A stretch of 23,219 nucleotides of DNA from positions 1-23,219 of the IMG/VR virus record IMGVR_UViG_3300025853_009693. The stretch is one strand, 5' to 3'. This stretch comes from a virus. Every line of letters begins with the position of its first letter. Position 1 is the stretch's first letter. Shown here piece after piece: positions 16,129 to 19,885 of the stretch. The position numbers and the translations under genes are program-made. The notes under the pieces were generated by a model. The model was not told the origin of the DNA. It was given only the letters and a program-made list of their open reading frames with translations, and made no database searches.

Positions 16129-16204
16129 GTCGCCTTTCGTGCGCGACACGCTACATACGGAATATACGCTACAAAATGACGGGTTTCACTACCCGTCTTT
16201 TTTT
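16129..16204 (+). ncRNA. Candidate short RNA between a late motif and a terminator
   Basis: About 76 bases lie between the expected start of the late-type motif at 16118-16124 and the end of a strong terminator. A 5 bp hairpin GTCGC/GCGAC (16129-16133 with 16143-16147) opens the segment. ACGCTACA occurs twice, 18 bases apart (16148-16155 and 16166-16173), and the terminator hairpin closes it. No reading frame of note is present. This may be only a regA 3' untranslated region. A separate short RNA is a hypothesis. Confidence 0.3.
16178..16204 (+). terminator. Rho-independent terminator after regA
   Basis: GACGGGT (16178-16184), loop TTCACT, ACCCGTC (16191-16197), then seven T (16198-16204). 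The stem is a perfect 7 bp. It ends the gp45 to regA transcription unit and separates it from hsp20. Confidence 0.92.
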
Positions 16205-16213
16205 GTCTTCTTG

Positions 16214-16219
16214 TATAAT
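16214..16219 (+). promoter_or_regulatory. -10 box TATAAT for hsp20
   Basis: A perfect TATAAT lies 10 bases after the terminator, inside TTGTATAATT. No good -35 is seen 16-18 bases upstream, since that stretch is the terminator arm. Start near 16226 gives a leader of about 55 bases. The hsp20 start is set by AAGGAG (16267-16272), 8 bases before ATG 16281, the best ribosome site in the window. Confidence 0.6.
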
Positions 16220-16280: not shown

Positions 16281-16712
16281 ATGAACATTCAGCGTTATAC
16301 TGCTGCGGATCTTAATAACCTGATGGATAAGATTACCCGCAACAGCATTGGTATGGACGAATACTTCGATCGTCTATTTAATCTTCACGAAACTACAAAG
16401 AATTACCCACCTTATAATCTAATTCAGGTAAATAATGTAGAATCTCATTTAGAGATTGCACTAGCAGGATTTAAGAAAGGAGAGGTCAATGTCTTCACGG
16501 AGTATGGAAAACTTTTTGTCGAGGGGCAACGGGAGGACACCGAATCCGAAAAGACGTTTGTCCACAAGGGATTGGCTCAAAGAAGTTTTCAACGAGCGTG
16601 GACTTTATCCGACGACACAGAAGTACGGGAAGTCACCTTCGAAGACGGACTCCTCAGAATCGTCCTCGGAAAAATAGTTCCAGAGCATCATGCCCGTAAG
16701 GATTATCTCTAA
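16281..16712 (+). CDS. hsp20: Small heat-shock protein (Hsp20/alpha-crystallin family)
   Basis: In 143 residues it has an alpha-crystallin domain (about 44-131): YPPYNLIQVNNVESHLEIALAGFKKGEVNVF, read as YNLIQVNN plus LEIALAGFKKGEV, then LFVEGQRE, RSFQRAWTLSDDTEVREVTFEDGLLRI. The A-G-F/V and the DGLLRI strand are family hallmarks. The C-terminus (IVPEHHARKDYL) has only a weak version of the IxI anchor. Hsp20 proteins hold unfolding proteins in soluble oligomers; the gene is near-universal in T4-like cyanophages. It has its own leader, a strong ribosome site, and terminators on both sides, so it is expressed as a single-gene unit. Confidence 0.93.
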   Translation: MNIQRYTAADLNNLMDKITRNSIGMDEYFDRLFNLHETTKNYPPYNLIQVNNVESHLEIALAGFKKGEVNVFTEYGKLFVEGQREDTESEKTFVHKGLAQRSFQRAWTLSDDTEVREVTFEDGLLRIVLGKIVPEHHARKDYL

Positions 16713-16715
16713 ATA
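16709..16715 (+). promoter_or_regulatory. Late-promoter-like motif CTAAATA at the hsp20 stop
   Basis: CTAAATA overlaps the hsp20 TAA (16710-16712). It resembles the cyanophage form of the late motif. Start near 16722 would give only about 60 bases before the terminator at 16744-16784. The assignment is by motif only. Confidence 0.4.
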
Positions 16716-16743
16716 ATAACGAATATCGTCGGCGCTATGCCAC

Positions 16744-16784
16744 GAGGGGCAACTGGCAAAATCCAGTTGACGCCCCTCTTTTTT
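16744..16784 (+). terminator. Rho-independent terminator after hsp20
   Basis: The left arm GAGGGGC-AACTGG (16744-16756) pairs with CCAGTT and GCCCCTC (16763-16778) across a CAAAAT loop. A 3-base bulge GAC (16769-16771) sits in the right arm. Six T follow (16779-16784). The paired length is 13 bp. The bulge also forms part of the -35 box of the next promoter. Confidence 0.93.
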
Positions 16785-16795
16785 ATTGGTAGAAT
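16767..16795 (+). promoter_or_regulatory. Promoter whose -35 lies in the terminator stem
   Basis: TTGACG (16767-16772), 17 bases, then TAGAAT (16790-16795). The -35 spans the bulge in the right arm of the hsp20 terminator, and the T tract forms most of the spacer. Predicted start is near 16802. This is only about 6 bases before ATG 16808, so the GGAGG at 16800-16804 would be mostly outside the transcript and the first gene would be nearly leaderless unless ATG 16817 is used. The match is good but start mapping is lacking. Confidence 0.65.
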
Positions 16796-16807
16796 AAATG
16801 GAGGTTA

Positions 16808-17194
16808 ATGTATTCTATGACAATCAAACTTGTATTACTGAAATCTGGTGAAGACATTATTGCCGATGTTGCAGAAATGGCTTCTGGTGAGGGTGAAGAT
16901 AAAAGAGTAGTTGGATATTTCCTTCACAAACCATGTATTGTTAAACTCAGAGATTCTCAGGTTTTGACTGAAGAAGTTGAAGCAGAGCAAAAATCTTCAT
17001 TTAAGGTATCTTTGTTTCCATGGATGCCACTCACTTCAGATAAAACCATTCCCGTTCCTGCCGATTGGTTGGTAACTATGGTTGAACCAAAAGAAAAACT
17101 AAAACAAATGTACATTGAGGATGTTTTAACGTATGGACAAGATAATCAAAGTTCTGGTTCTGACGAACAATCAGATTCTAATCAGTCAGATTGA
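16808..17194 (+). CDS. Sm-like (Lsm-fold) small protein, paralogue B
   Basis: This protein has 128 residues from ATG 16808, or 125 from ATG 16817 (GGAGG at 16800-16804 lies 3 or 12 bases ahead). Numbered from 16817: VLLKSGEDIIADVAE (6-20), HKPCIVKL (37-44), VSLFPWMPL (64-72), then KTIPVPADWLVTMVEPKEKLKQMY. The same strand pattern and the LK-[ST]-GE-[ED]-I, P-x-IV and [EF]PW landmarks occur in the 1922-2317 protein. The first strands resemble Sm1. RNA binding is inferred from the fold only. The last 20 residues are a Ser/Asp/Gln tail (QSSGSDEQSDSNQSD), encoded where the next gene already runs in another frame (62-base overlap). Confidence 0.72.
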   Translation: MYSMTIKLVLLKSGEDIIADVAEMASGEGEDKRVVGYFLHKPCIVKLRDSQVLTEEVEAEQKSSFKVSLFPWMPLTSDKTIPVPADWLVTMVEPKEKLKQMYIEDVLTYGQDNQSSGSDEQSDSNQSD

Positions 17195-17390
17195 AGAAGT
17201 TGGTGCTGATATTGGAGAACCTGATTGTAAACTGATAAATCCTTTTGTAATTAAAGATAGAAGCACCCTGGAACCATTCTTGCTAGAATACACAAAGCAA
17301 GATACATTTATGATGAGCTCTGACAAGATTATAACTCTTGCAGATCCTATGCCCACCCTACTTGAAAAATATCAGGACTTGATTAAGTAA
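17133..17390 (+). CDS. Sm-like (Lsm-fold) small protein, paralogue C
   Basis: This 85-residue protein starts 62 bases inside the previous gene in another frame. KVLVLTNNQILISQIEEVG (6-24), KLINPFVI (33-40), TLEPFLLEYTKQDTFMM (45-61) and KIITLADPMPTLLEKYQDLI (65-84) align with paralogues A and B through NP-x-[IV], [EF]P[WF], D-x-F/T and the closing T-x-x-x-P-x-x-x-L-x-x-x-Y. The conserved Gly of the first turn is replaced (TNNQ). GAGG at 17117-17120 lies 12 bases ahead. The first strand begins within the overlap, so a later start would remove it. TAATG couples it to the polymerase gene. Confidence 0.72.
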   Translation: MDKIIKVLVLTNNQILISQIEEVGADIGEPDCKLINPFVIKDRSTLEPFLLEYTKQDTFMMSSDKIITLADPMPTLLEKYQDLIK

Positions 17391-19885
17391 TGCGTTTTTA
17401 CACTAATGTTCAATTGATTGGCAATCAGTTCCTCGTTCGGGGGGTTGATAATGGGAAAAGGTATGAACATCGTGATGAATTTTTTCCCACTTTGTATGTA
17501 AAGACAAAAAAAGAATCTAAGTATAAAACGCTAAATGGTGAATCTGTAGAAGAAGTTAATCCTGGAACTGTTCGGGATTGTCGGGAGTTCTACAAGAAAT
17601 ATGATGAGGTAGATGGCTTTGCCATTTACGGAAACGATAGGTACATCTATCAATATATTTCTGAGAAGTATCCAGAAGATGAAATCAAGTTTGATATTAG
17701 TCAAATCAAACTAGTCACTCTTGATATTGAGGTTGCTTCTGAGCAAGGATTCCCTGATGTTGAATCTTGTTCAGAAGAAATCCTTGCCATTACTATTCAG
17801 GACTACACTACAAAGAAGATTATTACTTGGGGAGTTAAACCCTTTAATAATAAACAGAGTAATGTAACCTATCATCACTGCCCAAGTGAGTATGAACTTC
17901 TCAATCACTTCATTAACTATTGGATGGTTGATGTTCCAGATGTGATTACTGGTTGGAACATTGAGATGTATGATATTCCTTATATCTGCAAGAGACTCAA
18001 TAGGGTTCTTGGTGAGAAACTGATGAAACGTTTCTCTCCTTGGGGACTTGTAAGTGAGGGTGAAGCCTTTGTTAAAGGACGTAGACACACAACCTTTGAT
18101 GTTGGTGGTGTGACTCAACTTGACTATCTTAATCTTTATAAGAAGTTTACTTATAAAGCACAAGAATCATATCGTCTTGATTATATTGCTGAAGTAGAAC
18201 TTGGACAGAAGAAACTCGATCACTCTGAGTTTGATACCTTTAAGGACTTCTATACTCAAGGTTGGCAAAAGTTTATTGAATATAACATCGTTGACGTGGA
18301 ACTTGTCGATCGCCTAGAAGACAAGATGAAACTGATTGAACTCGCTCTCACCATGGCTTATGATGCCAAGGTGAATTATGTTGACGTGTTCTATCAAGTA
18401 AGAATGTGGGACAATATTATCTACAACTACTTGAAGAAGAGAAACATTGTTATTCCTCCTAAAGTTCGTTCTGATAAGAATGAAAAGTATGCTGGTGCAT
18501 ATGTTAAAGAACCTATTCCTGGCAAGTATGATTGGGTTGTGAGCTTTGACTTGAACTCTCTATACCCACACCTCATCATGCAATACAACATTTCTCCAGA
18601 AACTCTTCTTGATGAAAGGCACCCTACGGTGACAGTAGATAAGATTCTGAATGAGGAACTTAGTTTTGTGTTGTATAAGGATAATGCAATCTGTGCTAAT
18701 GGTGCAATGTTCCGCAAAGATGTCCGTGGATTCCTTCCAGAATTGATGGAGAAGATGTATGGCGATAGGGTTATCTTCAAGAAGAAAATGCTTGCAGCAA
18801 AACAGCAGTATGAGAAGACTCCGACTAAAGCACTAGAAAAAGAAATCGCCCGTTGTAACAACATTCAAATGGCGAAAAAGATTTCTCTTAACTCTGCTTA
18901 TGGTGCTATTGGCAATCAATACTTCAGGTATTACAAACTAGCAAATGCAGAGGCTATTACTCTTTCTGGACAAGTCTCTATCCGTTGGATTGAGGGTAAG
19001 ATGAATCAATATCTAAATAATCTTTTGCAAACAGAAGATGTCGATTATGTTGTCGCATCAGATACTGATTCGATTTATCTTAATCTTGGACCTCTTGTTG
19101 ATAAATTTTTTGCTTCTAAGTCTGACGATAAAGAGTCAATCGTCAAAATTCTTGATAAGATCTGTCAAGATAAGTTTGAACCGTTCATTGAACAATCTTA
19201 CCAGGAACTTGCGGACTATGTATCGGCATATGATCAGAAGATGCAGATGAAGCGTGAGAATATTGCTGATCGTGGTATTTGGACTGCGAAGAAGCGATAC
19301 ATTCTCAATGTCTGGAACAGTGAAGGAGTTCAATATTCGGAACCCAAACTGAAGATGATGGGTATTGAAGCTGTTAAATCATCTACACCTGCACCATGTC
19401 GTAAGATGATTAAGAATGCTTTGAATCTGGTTATGACTGGAACAGAAGATGATGTAATTGACTTTATCGAAAAGAGTCGTAAGGAATTTAAAAACCTTCC
19501 CCCAGAAGATATTTCATTCCCTCGTTCAGCGTCTGATGTTGTTAAGTACAAGTCTTCGTCAGACATTTATGTAAAAGGAACACCAATTCATATTCGTGGT
19601 GCATTGTTGTTCAATCATTATATTAAAGAGAAAAATTTGTCGAATAAGTATTCTCTTATTCAGAATGGTGAGAAAATTAAGTTCTGCTATCTGAAAAAAC
19701 CAAATATCATTCACGAAAATATCATTTCCTTCATTCAAGAATTTCCAAAGGAATTGGGAATTGACAAGTACGTTGACTATGACTTACAATTTGAGAAAGC
19801 ATTTTTAGAACCACTTAAGGCAATCTTGGATGCAATCGGTTGGAATGTCGAAAAAACTGTAAACCTAGAATCGTTTTTCTTTTAA
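17390..19885 (+). CDS. 43: gp43 family B DNA polymerase
   Basis: In 831 residues (T4: 898) there is a 3'-5' exonuclease domain with LDIEVA (D112, E114), TGWNIEMYD and YNIVDVELVDRL (Exo III). The palm and fingers follow with motif A SFDLNSLYP (D387), motif B KKISLNSAYG (496-505) and motif C SDTDS (D558 and D560). A KxY-like KKRYILNVW lies near 634. All catalytic residues are present. It is the replicative enzyme, held to DNA by gp45. It starts on the overlapping TAATG of paralogue C and ends on the start of a 54-residue gene. Confidence 0.98.
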   Translation: MRFYTNVQLIGNQFLVRGVDNGKRYEHRDEFFPTLYVKTKKESKYKTLNGESVEEVNPGTVRDCREFYKKYDEVDGFAIYGNDRYIYQYISEKYPEDEIKFDISQIKLVTLDIEVASEQGFPDVESCSEEILAITIQDYTTKKIITWGVKPFNNKQSNVTYHHCPSEYELLNHFINYWMVDVPDVITGWNIEMYDIPYICKRLNRVLGEKLMKRFSPWGLVSEGEAFVKGRRHTTFDVGGVTQLDYLNLYKKFTYKAQESYRLDYIAEVELGQKKLDHSEFDTFKDFYTQGWQKFIEYNIVDVELVDRLEDKMKLIELALTMAYDAKVNYVDVFYQVRMWDNIIYNYLKKRNIVIPPKVRSDKNEKYAGAYVKEPIPGKYDWVVSFDLNSLYPHLIMQYNISPETLLDERHPTVTVDKILNEELSFVLYKDNAICANGAMFRKDVRGFLPELMEKMYGDRVIFKKKMLAAKQQYEKTPTKALEKEIARCNNIQMAKKISLNSAYGAIGNQYFRYYKLANAEAITLSGQVSIRWIEGKMNQYLNNLLQTEDVDYVVASDTDSIYLNLGPLVDKFFASKSDDKESIVKILDKICQDKFEPFIEQSYQELADYVSAYDQKMQMKRENIADRGIWTAKKRYILNVWNSEGVQYSEPKLKMMGIEAVKSSTPAPCRKMIKNALNLVMTGTEDDVIDFIEKSRKEFKNLPPEDISFPRSASDVVKYKSSSDIYVKGTPIHIRGALLFNHYIKEKNLSNKYSLIQNGEKIKFCYLKKPNIIHENIISFIQEFPKELGIDKYVDYDLQFEKAFLEPLKAILDAIGWNVEKTVNLESFFF

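What the first reader, a model, noticed from the sequence alone, without database searches (positions are those of the whole stretch)
16744..16795. Terminator and promoter fused: -35 made by the bulge of the stem
The right arm of the hsp20 terminator carries a 3-base bulge GAC that breaks pairing but creates TTGACG, exactly 17 bases ahead of TAGAAT. One short sequence seems to stop hsp20 transcription and restart for the Sm-like and polymerase genes. The bulge looks selected for the promoter.
Basis: seen in the sequence. Interest (0 to 1): 0.58.

Follow-up and report, generated by a model that had tools for sequence, protein, structure and literature searches.

The report
Terminator with a promoter built inside
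In viruses of photosynthetic bacteria, one short DNA stretch folds as a stop signal for one gene while also carrying the start signal for the next genes, and this double use is kept in many related viruses.

Summary
Alone the promoter match is no better than chance (30 found, 32.8 expected), but relatives settle it. Of 130 distinct hairpins picked only by a motif upstream, 120 carry a nested promoter scoring >=10/12. Stem arms change with compensation while TTGAC and 17 nt stay. Among 186 distinct cassettes the extra right-arm bases go with the promoter: 141/152 with promoter have >=2, 20/24 without have <=1. The terminator's right arm plus T-tract serve as the 17-nt spacer; unrelated compact hairpins put TTGACA in the loop. 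The kind is known: composite terminator-promoters (PeSLs) of T4-like phages. RB49 has them in tandem, nt-1 nested but paired. This is a cyanophage variant, usually one strong copy per genome, at hsp20-gp43 or hli-psbA. New: TAAATA lies a fixed 6 nt before an invariant AATATCGTCG block (124/148), suggesting a ~64-nt late RNA. No transcript was mapped here.

The parts
16281..16712 (+). hsp20 (small heat-shock protein), the upstream gene whose transcript would be ended
   Evidence: ORF; matches annotated Hsp20 genes in cyanophages
16710..16715 (+). TAAATA, T4-late-promoter-like, overlapping the hsp20 stop codon
   Evidence: TAAATA lies exactly 6 nt before AATATCG in 124 of 148 distinct relatives; late-promoter role is inference
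16721..16735 (+). invariant block GAATATCGTCGGCGC, possible 5' end of a short late RNA
   Evidence: nearly invariant in alignment of 49 diverse copies; no Rfam match
16744..16778 (+). bulged terminator hairpin (7-bp lower stem, 6-bp upper stem, 6-nt loop, 3-nt right-arm bulge)
   Evidence: fold; compensatory changes
16769..16771 (+). unpaired GAC, middle of the -35 hexamer
   Evidence: GAC in 120 of 146 distinct cores
16779..16784 (+). T-tract of the terminator, also part of the promoter spacer
16767..16772 (+). -35 hexamer TTGACG
16773..16789 (+). 17-nt promoter spacer = right lower arm + T-tract + ATTGG
   Evidence: spacing 17 in 127 of 145 distinct cores
16790..16795 (+). -10 hexamer TAGAAT preceded by TG (extended -10)
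16817..17194 (+). Sm-like gene expected to be expressed from the nested promoter (second ATG; first ATG at 16808)
   Evidence: first ATG lies 21-22 nt after the -10 in 74 of 149 relatives; homologues
17390..19885 (+). gp43 DNA polymerase, same direction downstream
   Evidence: ORF; same order annotated in S-SM2 and Bellamy

Best explanation
A nested terminator-promoter cassette. RNA polymerase coming out of hsp20 makes the bulged GC hairpin and U6 and stops. The same DNA is a host-sigma70-type promoter whose -35 straddles the right-arm bulge, whose 17-nt spacer is the right lower arm plus T-tract, and whose extended -10 follows at once; initiation near 16802 lies downstream of the hairpin, so the new transcript (Sm-like gene, then gp43) escapes the terminator. 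The geometry works because the 3' half of a small intrinsic terminator (arm of about 7 plus about 7 T) is nearly as long as a sigma70 spacer. Shown: anatomy, conservation, covariation, association of bulge with promoter. Inferred: that it terminates, initiates, and is early.
For: Nested promoter >=10/12 in 120 of 130 distinct hairpins chosen without regard to it. 158 of 187 distinct hairpins of this family have a promoter >=10, all with the -35 10-14 nt before the T-run, and 0 in the shifted control. Stem covariation: 8 pairs changed on both sides against 4.7 shuffled, 0 of 500; 209 of 238 arm cells pair against 183.9 +- 3.4. Promoter loss goes with bulge shrinkage in Syn9 and S-PM2 and across 186 cassettes. 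S-PM2 has a convergent gene next door, so no promoter is needed there. Extra bases in the bulge region are matched by a -10 shift that keeps 17 in L140 and L077. Unrelated compact hairpins reach the same geometry, TTGACA in the loop, spacing 17 in 32 of 41 distinct viral sites.
Against: No 5' or 3' end is mapped. Copies are related by descent, so counts are not independent events. The predicted start falls inside ATGGAGG, leaving only AGG of a ribosome-binding site. Some relatives have weak -35s (TTGCNN, 14 of 146) or a best -10 at spacing 16, 18 or 20. Syn9, an isolate, keeps the hairpin without the promoter. The isolated promoter match is at chance level in the window.
Confidence: 0.85

Rival explanations
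1. Only the terminator (and the RNA it ends) matters; the promoter look-alike is a by-product of an inherited sequence.
For: Copies without a promoter persist (Syn9, S-PM2; L211, L229, L237, L257, L270). A bulge stays even there. One promoter-like match is at chance level.
Against: 17-nt spacing in 127 of 145 cores, TATAAT-like hexamers where nothing in the terminator needs them, and independent compact hairpins with the same spacing.
Confidence: 0.08
2. The promoter is real but the hairpin is not a working terminator; it is an mRNA-processing or stability element at the hsp20 3' end.
For: The 3-nt bulge weakens the stem; no 3' end is mapped.
Against: T-run directly after the stem in all distinct cassettes counted (selection required it, so not independent); the stem pairs despite sequence change; a T-tract is not needed by a promoter spacer.
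Confidence: 0.07
3. The cassette is chiefly a gene for a short late RNA: TAAATA is a late promoter, GAATATCGTCGNCGC its 5' end, the hairpin its terminator; the early promoter is an optional extra. (Compatible with the best explanation, so the confidences overlap.)
For: TAAATA exactly 6 nt before AATATCG in 124 of 148; the block is nearly invariant while the hairpin beside it varies; promoterless copies keep block and hairpin.
Against: No expression data; TAAATA also overlaps the upstream stop codon; 24 of 148 differ in spacing, and Syn9 is about 2 nt shorter; no conserved pairing target found.
Confidence: 0.3

Closest known systems
PeSLs (promoter-early stem-loops) of T4-like phages, Arbiol et al. 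2010 and Comeau et al. 2014, Genome Biol Evol (titles seen in the reference list of PMC4503421; the papers themselves not held; content recalled)
   Same: A terminator hairpin and a sigma70-type promoter form one short unit between genes of a T4-like phage.
   Different: In RB49 the promoter follows the T-run (9 of 13 attached sites, -35 at +16 to +19 in most); in nt-1 it is nested but the -35 sits in the left arm (7 sites at -17). Here it straddles a right-arm bulge at -12, there is usually one strong copy per genome, and a late-promoter-like block precedes it.
Compact cyanophage terminators with TTGACA-like hexamer in the hairpin loop (S-SM2 167164, Bellamy 184241, S-PM2 124323)
   Same: Right arm plus T-tract is the 17-nt spacer.
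   Different: No upper helix, no bulge, no GAATATCGTCG block; unrelated sequence.
Cyanophage terminators fused to a late promoter (T-tract running into TATAAATA; L049, L053, L074, L240)
   Same: Same upstream block and a right-arm bulge.
   Different: Outgoing promoter is of the T4-late type, bulge 1 nt.

Membership tests
PeSL (composite promoter-terminator of T4-like phages) | intrinsic-terminator-type stem-loop plus T-tract | tested here: met
PeSL (composite promoter-terminator of T4-like phages) | strong sigma70-like early promoter in the same short unit | tested here: met
   sequence level only:
PeSL (composite promoter-terminator of T4-like phages) | many similar copies scattered in one genome | tested here: not met
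   one strong copy (>=38.9 bits) in 18 of 20 records, none strong in S-CRM01 and P-SSM2
PeSL (composite promoter-terminator of T4-like phages) | found in a T4-like phage | tested here: met
   T4-like gene set in the window (names by resemblance) and cyanophage matches
PeSL (composite promoter-terminator of T4-like phages) | mediates recombination / gene shuffling | tested here: inconclusive
   two main addresses, hsp20-gp43 (154 of 165) and hli-psbA (10 of 165), one strong copy per genome; sampling leaned to hsp20
PeSL (composite promoter-terminator of T4-like phages) | shown transcription start and stop | not testable with these tools
   no transcript data
Known Rfam RNA family | covariance-model match | tested here: not met
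   no match at E<=1 in the window

The most novel reading that the evidence does not exclude
The cassette is a two-phase transcription switch and small-RNA gene: early, host polymerase starts inside the terminator toward gp43 (or psbA in other phages); late, the phage-modified polymerase starts at TAAATA and makes a conserved ~64-nt RNA beginning GAAUAUCGUCG that ends at the same hairpin. It would be an undescribed non-coding RNA of marine and freshwater cyanophages, with an early promoter folded into its own terminator.
Probability: 0.3. Interest if true: 0.68.

Novelty: new variant of a known kind. Interest (0 to 1): 0.5.

Why it matters
It gives a simple physical reason why terminators and promoters can be fused: the 3' half of a minimal intrinsic terminator is about as long as a sigma70 spacer, so a -35 placed in the hairpin loop or bulge falls at the right distance from a -10 after the T-tract. 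Cyanophages use this repeatedly, here in front of replication and photosynthesis genes, which would save space and insulate transcription units. It also gives a marked, conserved short-RNA candidate to look for in existing infection transcriptomes.

Tried and rejected
Chance: the single promoter match is not significant in the window; the case rests on relatives. Known RNA: Rfam search at E<=1 gave nothing. Multi-copy cassette: rejected by the one-strong-copy result. Nested design unique to cyanophages: rejected, nt-1 has seven nested copies and the compact pattern occurs in 23 bacterial contigs, mostly Firmicutes/Clostridia by title and mostly with 16-nt spacing. KVP40 showed no excess over the shifted control (4 against 4). 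Antisense target of the block: a bare CGACGATATT count in ten phage genomes and the window gave 0-3 per genome, cassette included, no lead. Transcript data: searches listed no mapped start or stop for this site; only listings, abstract beginnings and the passages were seen; no whole paper was read and supplements could not be searched. The PeSL papers were not held, so their content is recalled and I measured RB49, T4, KVP40 and nt-1 myself.

Searches use distinct sequences over different regular expressions, so their totals differ (145, 146, 148, 186, 165). Of the 168, 38 lacked the CTGG..CCAG loop; by my reading about 22 are chance matches outside cyanophages and the rest are variant cassettes. 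The 186 include two or so probable chance hits without TAAATA (one L093 site, L225), and the 10 cassettes scoring 9 stand in neither group of the 152/24 comparison.

Full report
WHAT IS THERE. The window is a T4-like cyanophage contig (genome-search runs it a virus record of 23,219 bases; gene content; nearest annotated matches are Synechococcus and Prochlorococcus phages). Between hsp20 (16281-16712) and an Sm-like gene followed by gp43 lies GAGGGGC AACTGG CAAAAT CCAGTT GAC GCCCCTC TTTTTT ATTGG TAGAAT. RNAfold folds it with a right-arm bulge GAC. TTGACG (16767-16772) and TAGAAT (16790-16795) are 17 nt apart, with TG in the extended -10 position.

IS IT MORE THAN CHANCE. Not from this sequence alone: the scanner found 30 promoter-like sites against 32.8 +- 6.1 in shuffles. 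Relatives decide. 80 IMG/VR loci with a close hsp20 (79 printed) show many versions of the same junction. A pattern scan for the hairpin top only, pooled with other held loci, gave 145 distinct cores; 127 have the best -10 exactly 17 nt after the TTNNNN hexamer, and 120 of 146 carry GAC. Two of these cores (L128, L129) are chance hits. A second scan used only the upstream motif GAATATCGTCGNCGC: of 168 distinct sites 130 have the CTGG..CCAG hairpin, 120 of which carry a promoter of at least 10/12 and 127 of at least 9/12. The other 38 are chance hits or variant cassettes.

STEM VERSUS PROMOTER. In 49 diverse copies eight base pairs change on both sides, against 4.7 in shuffles, and 46 cells against 17.7. 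Among 34 distinct arm combinations 209 of 238 cells pair, against 183.9 +- 3.4, maximum 195 in 1000 shuffles. So the arms are held by pairing, while TTGAC, the spacing and the -10 are held by sequence. A subfamily with one more upper pair (CCTGG..CCAGG) changes the bulge but keeps TTGAC and 17 nt. L140 and L077 have an extra T before GAC, and the -10 has moved with it.

The Syn9 copy (GGGGAC GACTGG..CCAGTC a GTCCCC) and the S-PM2 copy (GGGGTCT CTGG..CCAG a AGACCCC) have no nested promoter and only one unpaired A; in S-PM2 the next gene is convergent. Over 186 distinct cassettes, 141 of 152 with a promoter of at least 10 have two or more extra unpaired right-arm bases, while 20 of 24 scoring 8 or less have one or none (Fisher p 6e-15, ignoring relatedness); 10 cassettes scoring 9 are in neither group. 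L186 keeps a 3-nt bulge without the promoter. A 1-nt bulge persists without a promoter, so the bulge seems enlarged for the promoter rather than invented by it.

THE GEOMETRY IS GENERAL. I scanned whole phage genomes for terminators with a promoter of at least 10/12 near the T-run. Cyanophages: nested (-35 at -16 to -10) 3 in S-SM2, 2 in Bellamy, 1 in S-PM2, 1 in S-RIM2, none in Syn9 or S-CRM01. RB49: 9 of 13 after the T-run (tandem), 1 nested. T4: 1 after. nt-1: 9, of which 7 are of the GGGTTGACA type with the -35 in the left arm at -17. KVP40: 4, no more than its control. In 279 IMG/VR loci (1.7 Mb, 779 distinct terminators) the focal family has 158 of 187 with a promoter, all at -14 to -10, none in the shifted control; other terminators have 31 of 592, 23 of them at -15 to -10, against 9 in the control over the whole range. 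Many of these are compact hairpins whose loop holds TTGACA. A pattern for that form gave 73 viral stretches, 41 distinct, 32 with spacing 17 though the pattern allowed 11-21, and 23 bacterial contigs, none titled as cyanobacterial.

WHERE IT SITS. In 20 records searched with a covariance model 18 have exactly one strong copy; S-CRM01 and P-SSM2 have only weak ones. Of 165 distinct cassettes 154 lie after hsp20 or before Sm-like/gp43, 10 at hli before gp214/psbA (S-PM2 has hli only), one is unplaced; loci bias this towards hsp20. Annotated examples: S-SM2, Bellamy, S-SCSM1, SynMITS9220M01 and S-RIM2, S-WHM1, Syn2, S-IOM18, Syn9.

THE UPSTREAM HALF. TAAATA, overlapping the upstream stop codon, ends exactly 6 nt before AATATCG in 124 of 148 distinct contexts. 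T4 late promoters carry TATAAAT-type -10s (the string 5'-TATAAAT-3' is given in PMC3037559, passage seen; the distance to late starts is recalled). This would start an RNA at the invariant GAATATCGTCG and end it at the hairpin, about 64 nt. The block matches no Rfam family. This is inference and my most novel reading.

MECHANISM AND STANDING. Best reading: stop hsp20, restart for Sm-like and gp43 from the same DNA. Shown: anatomy, conservation, covariation, association. Inferred: activity, timing, use of host sigma factor. It works like a PeSL and belongs near that group, but the many-copies feature was tested and not met, and the arrangement differs from RB49 and nt-1, so I call it a new variant.

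Noticed in passing
window 16710-16735: TAAATA at a fixed 6 nt before an invariant AATATCGTCG block in 124 of 148 relatives: possible late promoter and 5' end of an undescribed short RNA.
   Followed up: partly
window 16798-16804: GAGG starts exactly 5 nt after the -10 in 58 of 76 relatives that have it, so the predicted start would cut the ribosome-binding site.
   Followed up: no
L244, L272: Variant order: promoter first, then a terminator whose left arm holds the predicted start, so the new transcript could lack the hairpin.
   Followed up: no
L049, L053, L074, L240: The same cassette ending in TTTTTATAAATA: terminator T-tract runs into a late-type promoter instead of an early one.
   Followed up: partly
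L008, L011: Hairpin lying between TTGCCT in its left arm and TATAAT, so most of the terminator forms the promoter spacer.
   Followed up: no
window 16178-16219: The RegA-hsp20 junction also has a terminator, with TATAAT (16214-16219) shortly after the T-run but no good -35.
   Followed up: no
L473, L474, L477, L480 and similar bacterial loci: Clostridia contigs share CCCTTGACAGGG..TTTTTTGCGCTATAAT..ATAGTACA..TTCTATCGAAC, a recurring unit with 16-nt spacing that looks like a promoter with a palindromic operator.
   Followed up: no
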